Origin: Solirubrobacterales bacterium
GTDB taxonomy: Bacteria > Actinomycetota > Thermoleophilia > Solirubrobacterales > Thermoleophilaceae
DNA: 64,000 nt
NCBI GenBank assembly: GCA_012718975.1
Contig: JAAYBF010000121.1
Coordinates: 26,534 to 90,533 of the forward strand
Direction: 5' to 3'
In this document: positions 14,104-22,668 of the stretch, one piece after another
Layout of the letters: each line of letters begins with the position of its first letter
Position numbering within the stretch: the first letter of the stretch is position 1
The notes under the pieces: model-generated
What the model saw: only the letters and a program-made list of their open reading frames with translations
The model's database searches: none
Told to the model about the DNA's origin: nothing
Position numbers and translations under genes: made by a program

Positions 14104-14144
14104 CGGTGAGAGTTACGGCCAATATTTGGCCGTAACTCTCACCG
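14104..14144. repeat. Palindromic element, family B, copy 1
   Basis: A 41-nt perfect inverted repeat: two 19-nt arms starting CGGTGAGAGTTACGGCC with a 3-nt TAT centre, so the core reads CCAATATTTGG. It lies 16 nt downstream of the metallophosphatase stop and could form a hairpin, but it lacks a U-tract. It opens the 845-nt gap 14088-14932, which contains no convincing gene. Confidence 0.8.
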
Positions 14145-14308
14145 GGCATCTTGGGCGGGGTGGCGTTCCGCTCGGGGCGGACGGGCGAGGGCTGGGACGG
14201 GGCCCGGTTGGCTGGGTAGGGAGGGGAGCGGTCCGGAACGGGTCTGATTTGACCGTTTCGCTCCCGGGTTCGGGCGCCGCCCGCTGTTTCCCGGCCTCCG
14301 AAAGCTCG

Positions 14309-14347
14309 GGTGAGAGTTACGGCCAGTATTTGGCCGAAACTCTCACC
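14309..14347. repeat. Palindromic element, family B, copy 2
   Basis: A second copy of the GGTGAGAGTTACGGCCA palindrome with one arm mismatch (TTACGG opposite CCGAAA) and a GTATT centre. It stands 205 nt from copy 1, and the stretch between them shows nothing else recognisable. The right end is close to the long repeat copy 2. Confidence 0.75.
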
Positions 14348-14399
14348 GCGCTCCTGAGCGGAGGCCATTGGGCCTCGGCGCCGAGCCCACCTTCACCGC

Positions 14400-17203: not shown

Positions 17204-17392
17204 GAGGAGTTCCCCACCTTATGCGGGTTCGGGGTCCGCGAGGGTAGACGACGCGGCGTAATTCCGGCGCCGGATGCCCGTTGGAGGGGTGCGATGCCGC
17301 TCTCCGAGTCGATCCTCCCGCCGCCTCTCGCCCTCGCCGGCGCGGGTGGCGGGCGCTGGAACGTCGCGCCCCGGCGCGCTACCTTGCGGAGG

Positions 17393-18874
17393 ATGTCGGC
17401 GGCGGCAGCATCCGGGGAGGCGCCCGAGCCGGACCTGGTCGCGGACGAGGCGCGCCTGGCGCGCGCGGCGGCGGGTGGCGACGGCGGTGCGTTCGCGACC
17501 CTGTACGAGCGCTACGAGCGGCGCGCCTACAACCTCGCCTACCGGGTCTCGGGCTCCGAGGACGACGCGGCCGACGCGGTCCAGGACGCGTTCGTGAGCG
17601 TGTTGCGGCGGCTGCCCTCGTTGGAGGGCCGCGAGCTGGCGTTCGGCTCCTACCTGTTCACCGCGACCCGCAACGCCTGCTACGACCTGATGGCCAAGCG
17701 CAAGCGGGCGGAGCCGAGCGACGCGATCCCCGAGAGCGCGGCCCCGATCGGCGCGGCGGCCGGCGGCGGCTTCGGCCTCGATCCGGGCGACCCCGACGAG
17801 GATCCCGATCGCCGGCTGCTGCTGGAGAGCCAGCAGGAGGAGATCCGGGCGGCGAACGCGCGGCTGCCGGAGCGCCAGCGCGAGGTGCTGGCGCTGCGCG
17901 AGCTGGAGGAGCTCTCCTACGACGAGATCGCCGAGATCATGGGGATGAACCGCAACTCGGTCGCCCAGCTGATCTCGCGTGCCCGGATCAAGCTGCGCGA
18001 CGAGTTGCGCGGCACGGCGCTGGCGTCGGTCGCGGCCTCCTCGCCGGACTGCGAGCGGGCGCTGCCGCTGATCGCCCTGCGCGACGACGGCCAGCTCGCC
18101 GAGGGCGGCGAGGACGCCGCCTGGCTCGACGCCCACATGGGCGGCTGCCACACCTGCCGGCTGGGGATGGAGGCGATGCAGGAGGCGGGTACCTCCTACC
18201 GTGCCTGGGTCCCGCTGGCGGCGGCTCCGTTCCTGTTCCGCGACACGCTCGCCAAGGCGGCGGAGCTGACCGGCGCGGATTGGAGCGAGACGATCGCCGA
18301 GCGCGCCCCGCGTCACGATCCGACGGCCTTCCACCCGGGCATGCCGCCGCTGTACCGGACGGCGACGGCGGCGGCCGGCCGGCGGCGCCGGCGCGGGCTC
18401 TGGGTCGCGGGCGGCCTGGGGACCGCGGCGCTGCTGGCGCTGGTGGTCGGCATCGCGGCGGGTGGCGACTCCCCCACTCCCCGCCCGGCGGCCGAGACGG
18501 TCGACGCGCCGGCGCAGCAGCAGCCACCGCCGACGACCGCCGAGAAGCCCGACGAGCCGCGCAAGCGCGCCAAGCGGCGCAAGCCCGCCGCCGACCCCGA
18601 GCCCGCCCCGGCGGCCGCCGCGCCGACGCCGGAGCCGGAGCCTTCGGCCGCCGCGCCGGCGCCCGCCGCGCCGGGTCCGGCCCCCGAGCCGGCCCCCGCC
18701 CCCACGCCGAAGCCGACGCCGCGGCCGCAGAGCCCGCCGGCGCGAACGCCGCCGCCCCCCGCCCCCGACCCTGAGCCGCCGCCGGTGGTCGAGGAGCCGC
18801 CGGTGGTCGAGGAGCCGCCGCCGGCGCCGGAGCCGCCGCCGCGATCGCCGAACGACCCGCCGACGATCGACTGA
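17393..18874 (+). CDS. ECF sigma factor fused to zinc-finger, TM and Pro-rich tail
   Basis: 493 aa. Residues ~20-105 are sigma region 2 (LYERYERRAYNLAYRV, DAVQDAFVSVLRRL) and ~150-205 region 4 (LPERQREVLALRELEELSYDEIAE). Without a stop the chain continues into a ZAS-type anti-sigma zinc finger (C220, then H248-x3-C252-x2-C255, HMGGCHTC), an amphipathic stretch, one membrane helix (~336-357, LWVAGGLGTAALLALVVGIA) and about 135 residues of Pro/Ala/Glu-rich extracytoplasmic tail. The result is a membrane-tethered sigma factor carrying its own inhibitor-like module, probably activated by proteolysis. ECF groups with fused C-terminal zinc fingers are known. The ATG follows TACCTT by 7 nt, and the only GGAGG touches the ATG, so a leaderless start is favoured. 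Confidence 0.87.
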   Translation: MSAAAASGEAPEPDLVADEARLARAAAGGDGGAFATLYERYERRAYNLAYRVSGSEDDAADAVQDAFVSVLRRLPSLEGRELAFGSYLFTATRNACYDLMAKRKRAEPSDAIPESAAPIGAAAGGGFGLDPGDPDEDPDRRLLLESQQEEIRAANARLPERQREVLALRELEELSYDEIAEIMGMNRNSVAQLISRARIKLRDELRGTALASVAASSPDCERALPLIALRDDGQLAEGGEDAAWLDAHMGGCHTCRLGMEAMQEAGTSYRAWVPLAAAPFLFRDTLAKAAELTGADWSETIAERAPRHDPTAFHPGMPPLYRTATAAAGRRRRRGLWVAGGLGTAALLALVVGIAAGGDSPTPRPAAETVDAPAQQQPPPTTAEKPDEPRKRAKRRKPAADPEPAPAAAAPTPEPEPSAAAPAPAAPGPAPEPAPAPTPKPTPRPQSPPARTPPPPAPDPEPPPVVEEPPVVEEPPPAPEPPPRSPNDPPTID

Positions 18875-18877
18875 GCC

Positions 18878-19753
18878 TCAGTAGGCGATCGGGTCGAAGC
18901 CGCCCCAGCCGGACGGGTCGGCGGGCTTGCGCCCGGGACAGCGCTGGATGCCGGTCTCAAACGGCAGCCGGACCATCACCGACCCGGTGTTGTTGCGCTC
19001 GTTGGACTCGTAGATCCCGTCGCGCGGGTCGGCGGTGTGGACGAGGTCGAAGCAGCCGCGCAGGCCGGTCACGTCGATCCACTGCTCGTGGTAGCCGGGC
19101 GGGTAGACGTCCGACCAGCCGACCGAGGTCCCGAGCACGACCCGCTGCCGTGACGGCGACTGGTTGCAGGCCGGGTAGACGAACCGCCGCGGCGAGCGCG
19201 GCAGCCGCGGCCGGCTGTGGTCGAGGTCGCGCAGGCAGTAGCTGACCTTCGGCCCGCGGCGGACCCTCTTGCGCCGCTCGCCGCGACGGTCGAGCCGCCA
19301 GAGCTCGAAGCGCGCCGCCCACTGGAACTTCCAGTAGGCGCCCTGGCCGGGGATCGCCTTGAACAGCAGCCGCGCGCCGGTGTCGATCCAGAGCCGCCCG
19401 CCGCCGCGGCGGTGGATCCGCTGGCGGGCGCGCATCCCGCGCGGGCGGTCGCGCACGCCGAGCAGCTCGGCGGGCCCGCGGCCGATGCTGTCGATCGAGT
19501 TGCCGGCGCGCAGCACCACTCGGCCGGGGCGCACGAACGGGTCGGTCACCAGGCCGAACGGGGGCTTCATCCGCAGGTCCGGACAGAGCAGCTTGGCCCG
19601 CTGCTCGCGGTCGAGGCACGGGTTGGGCGGCTTGCCGGCCCGCTCGCGGCGGTCCTGCGCGGAGGCGGCGGGGGCGGCGAGCGCCGCGGCGGCCGCGACG
19701 GCGACCAGCAGCAGCGCGGCCACCGTCCGGGGTGCGGGGAGGAAACGGGGCAA
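18878..19753 (-). CDS. Secreted lysyl-oxidase-like protein lacking the His cluster
   Basis: 291 aa, TTG start with TACAAC 7 nt upstream, signal peptide to about residue 32 (AAPAASAQ). The C-terminal half matches the bacterial lysyl-oxidase fold: SVGWSDVYPPGYHEQWIDVTGL, then HTADPRDGIYESNERNNTGS. In active members a cluster of histidines binds copper just before RYEL. Here that segment reads AYWKFQWAARFELWRL, with no His. Paired cysteines (SYCLRD, YPACNQ, RGCFDL, IQRCPG) fit an extracellular disulfide-bonded protein. Inference: a structural or binding protein with no copper-amine-oxidase activity. It converges on the sigma factor gene (3 nt between stops). Confidence 0.75.
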   Translation of the reverse strand: MPRFLPAPRTVAALLLVAVAAAAALAAPAASAQDRRERAGKPPNPCLDREQRAKLLCPDLRMKPPFGLVTDPFVRPGRVVLRAGNSIDSIGRGPAELLGVRDRPRGMRARQRIHRRGGGRLWIDTGARLLFKAIPGQGAYWKFQWAARFELWRLDRRGERRKRVRRGPKVSYCLRDLDHSRPRLPRSPRRFVYPACNQSPSRQRVVLGTSVGWSDVYPPGYHEQWIDVTGLRGCFDLVHTADPRDGIYESNERNNTGSVMVRLPFETGIQRCPGRKPADPSGWGGFDPIAY

Positions 19754-19792
19754 GACGTCTGTTGTAGCGGACCGCGCCGCCGGAGCGTCCGG

Positions 19793-20941
19793 TCAGCGGA
19801 CGCAGGGGCCCGTGTCGACGGGGCCGGACGCCCGCTGCAGCGCCGCGGCGACGACCGCGTTGGGGACCCCGAACCCGGAGGGGCGCGCGCTCTCGCTCGC
19901 CGAGGCGAAGACGGTCGCCAGCACCCGCCCGTCGCCGTCGACGACCGGCCCGCCGGAGTTGCCGGAGCGCACCAGCGCGCGGAAGGAGACGATCTCCCGC
20001 TCGACCGGCCCGCGGCCGTAGGCGTCCTGGCTGATGGCGGAGCGGGTCGCGCCGATCCGCGCGGGGCGGACGTCGAAGGGACCGTTCTCGGGGAAGCCGA
20101 GCACCGCCCCGGCGGTGCCCGAGCCGGGGTCGGCGACCAGCTCGAGCGCCGCGACGCCGCGCGCGTCGGGTACGGCGAGCAGCGCGAGGTCGTTGCCGAC
20201 GTCGAACCAGACCGCCTCGGCGTCCAGCTCGCCGCCGTCGCCGCCGACGTCGACGGTCGTGTCGTCCTGCCCGGCGACGACGTGCGCGTTGGTGACGACG
20301 ATCCCGTCGGCGACGACCCAACCGGTGCCCTGGACGCCGAGGCCGCAGGCGGTGCCGAGCACCCGCACGACGCTCTCGCCGGCGCGGCGGACCTCGGGGT
20401 CCCGGGCGACGGCCGAGTCGGGCGGGGCGACGTCGGCGCCGGGACCGTCGATCCGCGGGAACGGGTCGAAGCGGGCGAGCGTCCGCAGCAGCGGCCCCGA
20501 CGGCGGCAGGACCGCGTTGAGCTCGCGCAGGATCAGCGAGCGCTGGATCGGCTCGCGCAGCTCGCGCGCGCCGGGGGTGTGCAGCGCGACGGCGCCGACG
20601 ATCCAGGCGAGGCCGAGCGCGAGCGCCGCCGCGAGCAGCGCCCCGCCGATCCCGTCGATGACCCCGAGCGTCTCGCCGAACCGGCGCCGCAGCCGCCAGC
20701 CGAGCACCTCCGCGAGCGAGGCGACAAGCGCCCCCAGGAACAGCGCGGCGATCAACGCGACCAGCGGCGCCCAGGGCGATTGCGACCCCTCCGAGAGCAG
20801 CGTCGGAGCAAGACGCGCGCCGGCGAAGGCCCCCGCCGCGAAGCCCGCCAGGGTGAGCGCGCCGACGACGAGTCCGCGCCGGAAGCCGATCGCGAGCGCG
20901 ATGCCGGCGACGGCGACGATCACCCAGTCGAGCGGAGTCAT
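19793..20941 (-). CDS. MarP-like membrane serine protease (CvpA plus trypsin-like)
   Basis: 382 aa. Four membrane helices at roughly 5-25, 28-46, 58-80 and 96-120 form a CvpA/colicin-V-like domain, followed by a chymotrypsin-fold protease. Catalytic residues are visible: H220 in VTNAHVV, D251 in DVGNDLALL and S329 in RSGNSGGP. C199 (GTACGLG) and C380 (TGPCVR) correspond to the regulatory disulfide pair of mycobacterial MarP. MarP protects cells against acid and oxidative stress by cleaving envelope proteins (family knowledge). It diverges from the penicillin-binding protein gene with a 29-nt gap. It faces the same way as the lysyl-oxidase-like gene, 39 nt downstream. Confidence 0.88.
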   Translation of the reverse strand: MTPLDWVIVAVAGIALAIGFRRGLVVGALTLAGFAAGAFAGARLAPTLLSEGSQSPWAPLVALIAALFLGALVASLAEVLGWRLRRRFGETLGVIDGIGGALLAAALALGLAWIVGAVALHTPGARELREPIQRSLILRELNAVLPPSGPLLRTLARFDPFPRIDGPGADVAPPDSAVARDPEVRRAGESVVRVLGTACGLGVQGTGWVVADGIVVTNAHVVAGQDDTTVDVGGDGGELDAEAVWFDVGNDLALLAVPDARGVAALELVADPGSGTAGAVLGFPENGPFDVRPARIGATRSAISQDAYGRGPVEREIVSFRALVRSGNSGGPVVDGDGRVLATVFASASESARPSGFGVPNAVVAAALQRASGPVDTGPCVR

Positions 20942-20970
20942 GGGCGCTTGACGGTAGCCTCCCCTCTACG

Positions 20971-22668
20971 GTGGCGCGTGAGATGACCCTGGAGCGGAGG
21001 CGGCGCCTGACGCGCCGCGCCCTGCCCGCCGCCGGGGCGGTCGCCGCCGTCGCGTTCTTCGCCGGCCTGGCGGTCGGCGGCGGCGGCGAGTCCGAGGCGG
21101 CGCGCGTCGCGCGCGACTTCTCCGCCGCCTGGGTCCGCGGCGACTACGGCGCGATGCACGGGATGCTGACCCCGCAGACGCGTGCGGCCGTCACCGCGGA
21201 GCAGTTCGCCGACAGCTATCGCGGCGCGGCCGAGACGGCCACCCAGCGGCGGATGGCGGTCGCGGCGCCCCAGACCGACGGCGACCGTGCGCTGATCGCG
21301 GTCGACGTCGAGACGGCGGTCTTCGGGCCGGTCGCGGGCCAGGTCGCCTTCGCGGTGCTGGAGGACGGCATCGACTGGCGCCCGCATCTCGTCTTCCCCG
21401 GGCTGCGTCCCGGCGAGTCGCTCGACCGCCGGACCGAGGCCCCGGAGCGCGCGCCGCTGCTCGCGGCCGACGGCCAGACGATCGCCGAGGGCCCGGCCGA
21501 CGCGCGCGTCCAGCCGCTGACCGCGACCGCGTCGATCGCCGGCACGCTCGCCGCGAGCGACGACGCGGCGGTCCGCGAGTCGCTCTACGCGCGTGGCTTC
21601 CCGGAGGACACGCCGGTCGGGTCCAACGGTCTGGAGCGGGTCTTCGAGGAGCAGCTCGCGGGCCGGCCGGGCGGCGAGCTGCTCGCGGGGTCGCGCGTGC
21701 TGGCCTCGAGCGAGCCGCGGCCGGCGGCGCCGGTGGAGACGACGATCGTGCCGTCGGTGCAGGAGGCGGCCGATGTCGGCCTCGCCGGCCGGCTCGGCGG
21801 GGTCGCGGCGATGGACCCGCGCAGCGGCGAGATCCTCGCGCTGGCGGGGATCGCCTTCTCCGCCCCCCAGCCGCCCGGCTCGACGTTCAAGATCGTGACG
21901 ACCGCCGCCGCGCTCGAGGACGGCAAGGTGAAGATGTCCGACGAGTACCCGATCGAGACGGCGGCGACGATCGACGGGGTCGAGCTCGAGAACGCCAACG
22001 GCGAGTACTGCGGCGGCACGCTCGCCGAGGCGTTCGCGCACTCCTGCAACTCGGTGTTCGCCCCGATGGGGGTCGAGGTCGGGGCCGAGCGGCTGGTCGA
22101 GGAGGCCGAGCAGTTCGGCTGGAACGCCGATCCGGGGATCCCCGGCGCCGCCGAGAGCACGATCCCGCCGGCGAGCGAGATCACCTCGCCGCTGGAGGTG
22201 GGCTCGACCGCGATCGGCCAGTACAAGACGCTCGCGACGACGCTGGAGATGGCGACGGTCGCCCAGACGATCGCCAACGGCGGCGTGCGGCTGCCGGCGA
22301 CGCTCGCCCCGCGCCGGGGCCGCGGTGACGGGGTCCGGGCGGTATCGCCGAAGGTCGCCCGCCAGATCACCGAGCTGATGACCGGCGTCGTCGCCTACGG
22401 CACCGGCACCCTGGCCGCCGTCGAGGGCGTCGAGGTGGCGGGCAAGACCGGCACCGCCGAGCTGGGCGACACCCGCGGCGACGACCCCGAGGCCGCCGCC
22501 CGCGACGGCGACCCGTCGAACACCGACGCCTGGTTCACAGCCTTCGCCCCCGCCGACGACCCGCGCGTCGTGGTCAGCGTGATGCTCGTCCGCAACGGCT
22601 CCGGCGGCGCGACCGCCGCCCCAGCCGCCCAGGGCGTCCTCGTCGCCGGGCTCAAGCGCGAGAGCTGA
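20971..22668 (+). CDS. Penicillin-binding protein, class B transpeptidase
   Basis: 565 aa. One N-terminal membrane anchor (about residues 17-37) precedes an NTF2-like MecA_N-type domain (~40-150) and the transpeptidase. Catalytic motifs: S304-x-x-K307 (PPGSTFKIV), S358-C-N360 and K492-T-G (AGKTGTAE). It should cross-link peptidoglycan on the outer face of the membrane. The short spacer before SxxK and the NTF2-like domain resemble PbpA/PBP2a-type proteins rather than FtsI. GTG (20971) is followed in frame by ATG at 20983, either of which could be used. The short gap to marP-like suggests divergent control from a shared region. Confidence 0.88.
   Translation: MAREMTLERRRRLTRRALPAAGAVAAVAFFAGLAVGGGGESEAARVARDFSAAWVRGDYGAMHGMLTPQTRAAVTAEQFADSYRGAAETATQRRMAVAAPQTDGDRALIAVDVETAVFGPVAGQVAFAVLEDGIDWRPHLVFPGLRPGESLDRRTEAPERAPLLAADGQTIAEGPADARVQPLTATASIAGTLAASDDAAVRESLYARGFPEDTPVGSNGLERVFEEQLAGRPGGELLAGSRVLASSEPRPAAPVETTIVPSVQEAADVGLAGRLGGVAAMDPRSGEILALAGIAFSAPQPPGSTFKIVTTAAALEDGKVKMSDEYPIETAATIDGVELENANGEYCGGTLAEAFAHSCNSVFAPMGVEVGAERLVEEAEQFGWNADPGIPGAAESTIPPASEITSPLEVGSTAIGQYKTLATTLEMATVAQTIANGGVRLPATLAPRRGRGDGVRAVSPKVARQITELMTGVVAYGTGTLAAVEGVEVAGKTGTAELGDTRGDDPEAAARDGDPSNTDAWFTAFAPADDPRVVVSVMLVRNGSGGATAAPAAQGVLVAGLKRES

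What the first reader, a model, noticed from the sequence alone, without database searches (positions are those of the whole stretch)
17393..18874. Sigma factor that carries its own anti-sigma-like zinc finger and membrane anchor
One open frame joins ECF sigma regions 2 and 4, a ZAS motif (HMGGCHTC), a membrane helix and a ~135-residue Pro-rich external tail. It would be held at the membrane until cut. The Pro-rich tail probably reaches into the wall and may sense it. Fused zinc-finger ECF groups are known, so novelty lies in the tail and the signal.
Basis: partly seen in the sequence, partly recalled or inferred. Interest (0 to 1): 0.58.

Follow-up and report, generated by a model that had tools for sequence, protein, structure and literature searches.

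The report
Membrane-tethered sigma factor with built-in inhibitor
This actinobacterium makes a gene switch fused to its own brake and membrane anchor, a design already known in other actinobacteria, but relatives reveal an unreported DNA address that this switch probably uses to turn on itself and a handful of secreted surface proteins.

Summary
Window 17393-18874 (+) is one 493-residue frame: ECF sigma regions 2 and 4, a class-I-type anti-sigma domain (C220, H248, C252, C255), one membrane helix, and a 137-residue tail that is 38% proline. Seventeen of 232 genomes of the order hold it. Every copy complete across the join is fused; the one frameshift found lies inside sigma, in an error-prone locus.

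The design is not new: ECF52/48/53 are described as sigma + zinc finger + membrane helix, and ECF52 even has a Pro-rich tail. This protein lacks the ECF52 carbohydrate-binding domain and is no closer to ECF52 than to ordinary ECFs. Zinc ligands are lost in two relative genera, so zinc is not the general signal.

The new part is a candidate promoter, GTAA(T/G/C)-N16-(C/G)GTT. It lies before sigma here (17258-17282), and in relatives before sigma or an exported-protein gene preceding it. It also precedes exported beta-propeller, collagen-like and lipoprotein genes elsewhere. Sites number one to a few per genome.

Most likely the protein is held inactive at the membrane, freed by proteolysis, then activates itself and a small surface-protein regulon. 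Release and signal are inferred, not shown.

The parts
17258..17282 (+). Candidate ECF-type promoter of the sigma gene itself: GTAAT-N16-CGTT (-35 17258-17262, -10 17279-17282)
   Evidence: Only GTAAN17-18CGTT match in 64 kb, both strands, 0.09 expected; same motif before sigma or the exported gene ahead of it in relatives
17294..17296 (+). Alternative in-frame ATG, 11 nt after the candidate -10 (would give a 526-aa form)
   Evidence: sequence and ORF listing
17380..17385 (+). TACCTT, housekeeping-type TANNNT -10 element 7 nt before ATG 17393 (leaderless mRNA)
   Evidence: TANNNT 6-7 nt before the start in 13 orthologues, 9 nt in two more; background 0.48% of ATG/GTG
17393..18874 (+). CDS: ECF sigma - anti-sigma domain - membrane helix - Pro-rich tail, 493 aa
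17501..17707 (+). sigma region 2 (residues 37-105)
   Evidence: PF04542 3.5e-17
17837..17995 (+). sigma region 4 (residues 149-201)
   Evidence: PF08281 3.8e-17
18032..18283 (+). anti-sigma domain, about residues 214-297: helices 218-231, 240-251 and a continuous 253-293
   Evidence: AlphaFold model from 15 sequences; zf-HC2 in orthologues
18050..18157 (+). zinc-ligand span C220...H248-x3-C252-x2-C255
   Evidence: alignment; cysteine ligands absent in L130, L137, L138, L139
18404..18460 (+). membrane helix (residues 338-356), preceded by RRRRR
   Evidence: hydropathy 2.15 over 19 residues; helix 329-356 in model; net +5 on the inner side
18461..18871 (+). extracytoplasmic Pro-rich tail (residues 357-493), no recognisable domain
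18560..18583 (+). basic patch RKRAKRRK (residues 390-397) about 33 residues outside the membrane; a similar patch in most orthologues

Best explanation
It is a single-polypeptide ECF sigma/anti-sigma switch. A housekeeping-type (TANNNT) leaderless promoter makes a basal amount of protein. The C-terminal four-helix anti-sigma domain folds back on sigma2 and sigma4 of the same chain and, with the membrane helix, keeps sigma off RNA polymerase. The outer Pro-rich tail reaches toward or into the wall. An envelope event exposes the tail or juxtamembrane segment to a site-1 protease; an M50 site-2 protease then cuts in the membrane and the sigma-bearing part is freed. Free sigma recognises GTAA(T/G/C)-N16-(C/G)GTT, amplifies its own gene and turns on a very small regulon of exported surface proteins: beta-propellers, collagen-like proteins and a lipoprotein. 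Shown here: the fusion, the domain order, the conserved basal -10, the motif and its placement. Inferred: cis-inhibition, topology, proteolytic release, that this sigma is what reads the motif, and the signal, which remains unknown.
For: Found in 17 of 232 genomes of the order, fused wherever complete. The model gives the class-I anti-sigma helix order, with pLDDT near or above 90 over most of sigma2, sigma4 and ASD helices 1-2; nearest solved structures are ECF sigmas, several solved with RseA, MucA or RsiW. In known class I anti-sigmas helices 1-3 bind sigma4 and helix 4 binds sigma2 (PMC7406223). Motif: 12 hits in 475 kb of strand over 17 loci, 11 of them directly before sigma or before the exported gene preceding sigma; shuffles of the 25 upstream regions give a mean of 0.05 regions against 10 observed. 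Genome-wide the motif is rare: each of the five sigma+ genomes of genus g17 that were scanned has one site at the sigma locus and one 32-46 nt before a homologous exported collagen-like protein, with one further site in two of them. Two genomes without an orthologue at E<=1e-30 (G033 of the same genus, G052) show no site before an exported gene. In the window's own genome the motif stands 8-34 nt before an exported Vgb-type propeller and a lipoprotein. Only 1 of 48 other ECF-relative loci carries it, and that one (L145) is among the nearest relatives outside the order. M50 proteases are present.
Against: The motif was found after the fact in the same data, although it then recurred genome-wide at sensible places. 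No expression, binding or cleavage data exist. CGTT-form sites in the own genome number 8 against 6 for the reversed control, so most sites there are chance. L128, L136, L137, L138 and L141 have no exact motif. Domain packing in the model is uncertain (pTM 0.34). No protease was linked to this protein specifically. The gene is absent from the syntenic site in a sister species, so it is dispensable.
Confidence: 0.7

Rival explanations
1. Same fused switch, but released without proteolysis: the signal changes the fold (zinc loss or tail tension) and sigma works while still tethered.
For: Zinc site present here; some zinc anti-sigmas are redox sensors (PMC7406223).
Against: The cysteine ligands are lost in two relative genera while the rest is kept (L130/L139 and L137/L138), so zinc is not the general sensor; membrane-bound anti-sigmas are usually released by proteolysis (PMC8103513).
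Confidence: 0.12
2. The gene is an artefact: two genes (sigma and anti-sigma) joined by a sequencing error.
For: G225 shows a frameshift in this gene.
Against: All orthologues complete across the junction are fused; the G225 break is in the sigma2-sigma4 linker and its neighbour gene loses its frame too.
Confidence: 0.02
3. The gene is on its way out and no longer works in this genome.
For: In sister species G007 the sigma half is decayed (27 of 58 conserved sigma positions changed against 3 of 14 in the anti-sigma domain); in G006 the gene is missing between topA and the lysyl-oxidase-like gene.
Against: In the window the sigma regions score well and are 47-79% identical to those of other families, and the motif is intact before sigma and before an exported gene elsewhere.
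Confidence: 0.1
4. The GTAA-N16-GTT element belongs to another regulator or sigma factor, and this sigma gene is only one of its targets.
For: The promoter assignment is by position and co-occurrence only.
Against: Rare motif with one copy at the sigma locus in each scanned g17 genome that has sigma, and no exported-gene site in the two genomes without it that were checked; absent before 47 of 48 other ECF-relative loci.
Confidence: 0.15

Closest known systems
ECF52 (SCO4117 of Streptomyces coelicolor)
   Same: Sigma2-sigma4, HxxxCxxC zinc finger, membrane region and Pro-rich outer segment in one chain; two promoters, one proposed to be autoregulated; proposed proteolytic release (PMC5826349). 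ECF52-type proteins L194 and L195 recovered here show the same order.
   Different: ECF52 ends in a carbohydrate-binding (NPCBM) domain, absent here; sequence is remote (102-110 bits to the orthologue profile, no better than unfused ECFs at about 100-125 bits); its proposed motif CSGYN-17-SRHA differs from GTAAN-16-SGTT.
ECF48 and ECF53
   Same: Actinobacterial ECFs with a C-terminal fusion of zinc finger and one or two membrane helices, expected to be freed by proteolysis (PMC8999054).
   Different: Not testable by sequence here: the group models were not available.
IutY (ECF243, Pseudomonas putida)
   Same: Sigma fused to its own membrane anti-sigma; proteolysis by Prc and RseP shown by experiment (PMC8999054).
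   Different: Iron-uptake cell-surface signalling in a Gram-negative; different regulator domain and signal.
Class I anti-sigma factors (RseA, RsiW, ChrR, MucA)
   Same: Predicted helix order of the anti-sigma domain; HxxxCxxC; groups mixing zinc-binding and zinc-less members are also known there (PMC7406223).
   Different: Separate proteins there, in cis here.

Membership tests
ECF sigma factors | Region 2 and region 4 joined by a short linker, no region 3 | tested here: met
   PF04542, PF08281, TIGR02937 3e-32
Class I anti-sigma domain (ASDI) | Four-helix domain, often with HxxxCxxC | tested here: met
   Helices 218-231, 240-251, 253-293 (third and fourth continuous) in the model; zf-HC2 significant in some orthologues, weak (E=1.2) in this copy
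ECFs with fused membrane anti-sigma (general kind) | Sigma, anti-sigma domain and membrane helix in one conserved frame | tested here: met
   all orthologues complete across the junction
ECFs with fused membrane anti-sigma (general kind) | Activation by proteolytic release | not testable with these tools
   M50 proteases present in the genome, nothing more
ECF52 | Zinc finger, membrane helix and Pro-rich segment after sigma | tested here: met
ECF52 | C-terminal carbohydrate-binding module | tested here: not met
   No domain after residue 356; NPCBM present in ECF52-like L194/L195
ECF52 | Sequence clade | tested here: inconclusive
   ECF52-like rows attach near the window row only on a branch of length 1.5, with 56/93 support at the fork; profile scores 102-110 bits, as for unfused ECFs
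ECF48 / ECF53 | Group-specific sequence model | not tested
   The classification paper and its models were not held

The most novel reading that the evidence does not exclude
This clade is a separate fused-ECF group with its own promoter code (GTAA-N16-SGTT). It controls a tiny, near-private regulon of surface proteins (beta-propeller, collagen-like) that differs by lineage: the same switch and address are kept while the exported targets are swapped between families. If the propeller or collagen-like product is also what the Pro-rich tail senses, it would be a closed surface-homeostasis loop run by one polypeptide.
Probability: 0.35. Interest if true: 0.65.

Novelty: new variant of a known kind. 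Interest (0 to 1): 0.5.

Why it matters
Fused sigma/anti-sigma proteins are common in Actinobacteria, but the papers read here describe regulons for few of them (SCO4117, IutY), and for SCO4117 the proposed motifs disagree. Here a predicted promoter is short, rare and placed before a handful of exported genes, so the target list and the autoregulation can be tested with two reporters. Natural variants (zinc ligands lost in two genera, a sigma half decayed while the anti-sigma half stays) separate which parts the system needs.

Tried and rejected
Frameshift or two-gene explanation: rejected. Autoregulation through a classical GGAAC...CGTC promoter: none at the sigma, MarP-like, PBP, lysyl-oxidase-like or topA genes; the GGAAC at 17358 is not conserved. 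Link to the window's neighbours (MarP-like protease, PBP, lysyl-oxidase-like protein): rejected, since the same neighbours sit together in G006 without the sigma gene and orthologues elsewhere have other neighbours. Shine-Dalgarno start at 17294 as the sole start: not preferred, because the TANNNT-to-start spacing at 17393 is what relatives conserve. Zinc as the sensor: unlikely for the family. Filing as ECF52: not done, the carbohydrate-binding feature was tested and not met. Presence/absence test of the Vgb-type propeller's promoter in sister species: not possible, because no clear orthologue of that propeller exists in G006 or G007. Homology between the exported propellers of different families: none by BLAST.

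Full report
What is there. Window 17393-18874 (+) encodes 493 residues in one frame. Residues 37-105 are sigma region 2 and 149-201 region 4. They are followed by C220...H248xxxC252xxC255, one membrane helix (338-356, RRRRR on its inner side) and a 137-residue tail with 38% proline and no domain. For this copy the zinc finger is below Pfam's cut-off (E=1.2); in orthologues the same stretch reaches 1.2e-4 and 2e-4, so the assignment is sound.

Related proteins. A search of the order gives this protein in 17 of 232 genomes at E<=1e-30. One named record is a Solirubrobacteraceae metagenome bin (JAUXSD010000281), so the window is probably from the Solirubrobacterales (inference). Every orthologue complete across the join has sigma, anti-sigma domain and membrane helix in one frame. 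The outer tail is mostly Pro-rich where it is not cut short, but differs in length and sequence. A basic patch roughly 26-48 residues outside the membrane recurs in most. The cysteine zinc ligands are replaced in two genera (L130/L139; L137/L138). The wider phylum holds many other fused ECFs, some with real outer domains (Big_7 in L148, CARDB in L149, BACON in L187), and the window's own genome has at least three more zinc-finger ECF fusions with a membrane helix (L200-L202).

Fold. AlphaFold on a 15-sequence alignment gives confident sigma2, sigma4 and anti-sigma helices (218-231, 240-251, 253-293) and a long membrane helix, but pTM is 0.34, so how the domains pack is not known. Foldseek's best hits are ECF sigmas, including those solved with RseA, MucA and RsiW.

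Evolution in the genus. The gene lies between topA and a lysyl-oxidase-like gene. In G007 the same place holds an orthologue whose sigma half has decayed: 27 of 58 strongly conserved sigma positions changed, against 3 of 14 in the anti-sigma domain, and Pfam sigma scores fall below cut-off. In G006 the two flanking genes abut with about 50 nt between and the gene is absent. So it is accessory here, and its neighbours are not its partners.

Basal expression. In 13 orthologues TANNNT stands 6 or 7 nt before the start codon and in two more 9 nt; by chance 0.48% of ATG/GTG have it at 6-7 nt. TANNNT is the main -10 element mapped in Mycobacterium tuberculosis, where leaderless mRNAs are common (PMC3898074). 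This points to basal, leaderless expression and supports the start at 17393.

A second, rarer element was found while comparing upstream regions: GTAA(T/G/C)-N16-(C/G)GTT. In the window it is at 17258-17282, the only CGTT-form match in 64 kb (expected 0.09). In relatives it stands before sigma (L126, with a spacer of 17; L131) or before an exported protein gene that lies just upstream of sigma (L127, L129, L130, L132-L135, L139). In all 17 loci there are 12 matches on both strands and 11 are these; shuffled upstream regions give 0.05 on average against 10 observed. Only 1 of 48 other ECF-relative loci has it.

Regulon. Genome-wide scans find one to a few sites per genome. In each of the five scanned sigma+ genomes of genus g17, one site is at the sigma locus and another stands 32-46 nt before a homologous exported protein with a short collagen-like stretch (61-74% identical); two of the five genomes have one further site. 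In two genomes without an orthologue (G033, same genus, and G052) no site precedes an exported gene. In the f4 genomes sites precede the sigma-linked propeller and further exported proteins, among them a second propeller-like family (L266, L268). In the window's genome, besides sigma, the element stands 8 nt before the ATG of an exported Vgb-lyase-type propeller (PF24684, 5e-42) and 34 nt before a lipoprotein; the remaining five hits look like chance, and the reversed control pattern has 6 hits. The motif was derived from these data, so the genome-wide recurrence, not the shuffle figure, is the main support.

Interpretation. The simplest reading is a cis-inhibited, membrane-tethered sigma with basal housekeeping expression and autoregulated amplification, controlling a small set of surface proteins. 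Cis-inhibition follows from the known way class I anti-sigmas bind (PMC7406223). Proteolytic release is what a review expects for ECF48/52/53 and is shown for IutY (PMC8999054). The M50 proteases it would need are present. The signal is unknown; the Pro-rich tail is best seen as a stalk or wall-reaching segment.

Comparison. The kind is known. Against ECF52 the carbohydrate-binding domain is missing, sequence closeness is no more than to unfused ECFs, and the promoter differs. I therefore call it a new variant of a known kind, not an ECF52 member. The ECF classification paper and its models were not held, so this clade may already have a group number.

Noticed in passing
L141:7442-8995 (G007, same genus): Syntenic orthologue whose sigma half has lost 27 of 58 conserved positions while the anti-sigma domain, membrane helix and tail stay intact in an open frame: a possible pseudo-sigma.
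   Followed up: partly
L215 (G006:C13), between 4920 and 4973: The site without the gene: topA and the lysyl-oxidase-like gene abut with about 50 nt between them.
   Followed up: yes
L131-L135, around the sigma start codon: In genus g17 the -10 and start codon of sigma are flanked by an inverted repeat (for example GGACCCGGAGCG ... CGCTCCGGGTCC) whose changes look compensatory by eye; possible operator.
   Followed up: no
window 18878-22668: Lysyl-oxidase-like exported protein, MarP-like membrane serine protease (Colicin_V + Trypsin_2) and a penicillin-binding protein in a row, conserved in G006 and G007 whether or not the sigma gene is there.
   Followed up: partly
L249, L254, L255, L257, L258: Exported ~200-aa proteins with a short collagen-like GxY stretch behind the motif; distant relatives of their N-terminal part lie near the sigma gene in L136 and L137.
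   Followed up: partly
G000:C224 (L224/L225); G000:C116:3-356; G000:C12:160-570: Exported Vgb-type propeller whose C-terminal ~120-140 residues recur elsewhere in the genome (95% identical copy on C116), perhaps a shared export or surface module.
   Followed up: no
window 14105-14147 and 14309-14351: Two near-identical 43-nt palindromic elements (GGTGAGAGTTACGGCC...GGCCGTAACTCTCACC), 204 nt apart, downstream of a metallophosphoesterase-like gene.
   Followed up: no
window 17294: In-frame ATG 11 nt after the candidate ECF -10; L126 and L131 also have in-frame starts shortly after theirs, so the induced mRNA may encode an N-terminally longer sigma.
   Followed up: no
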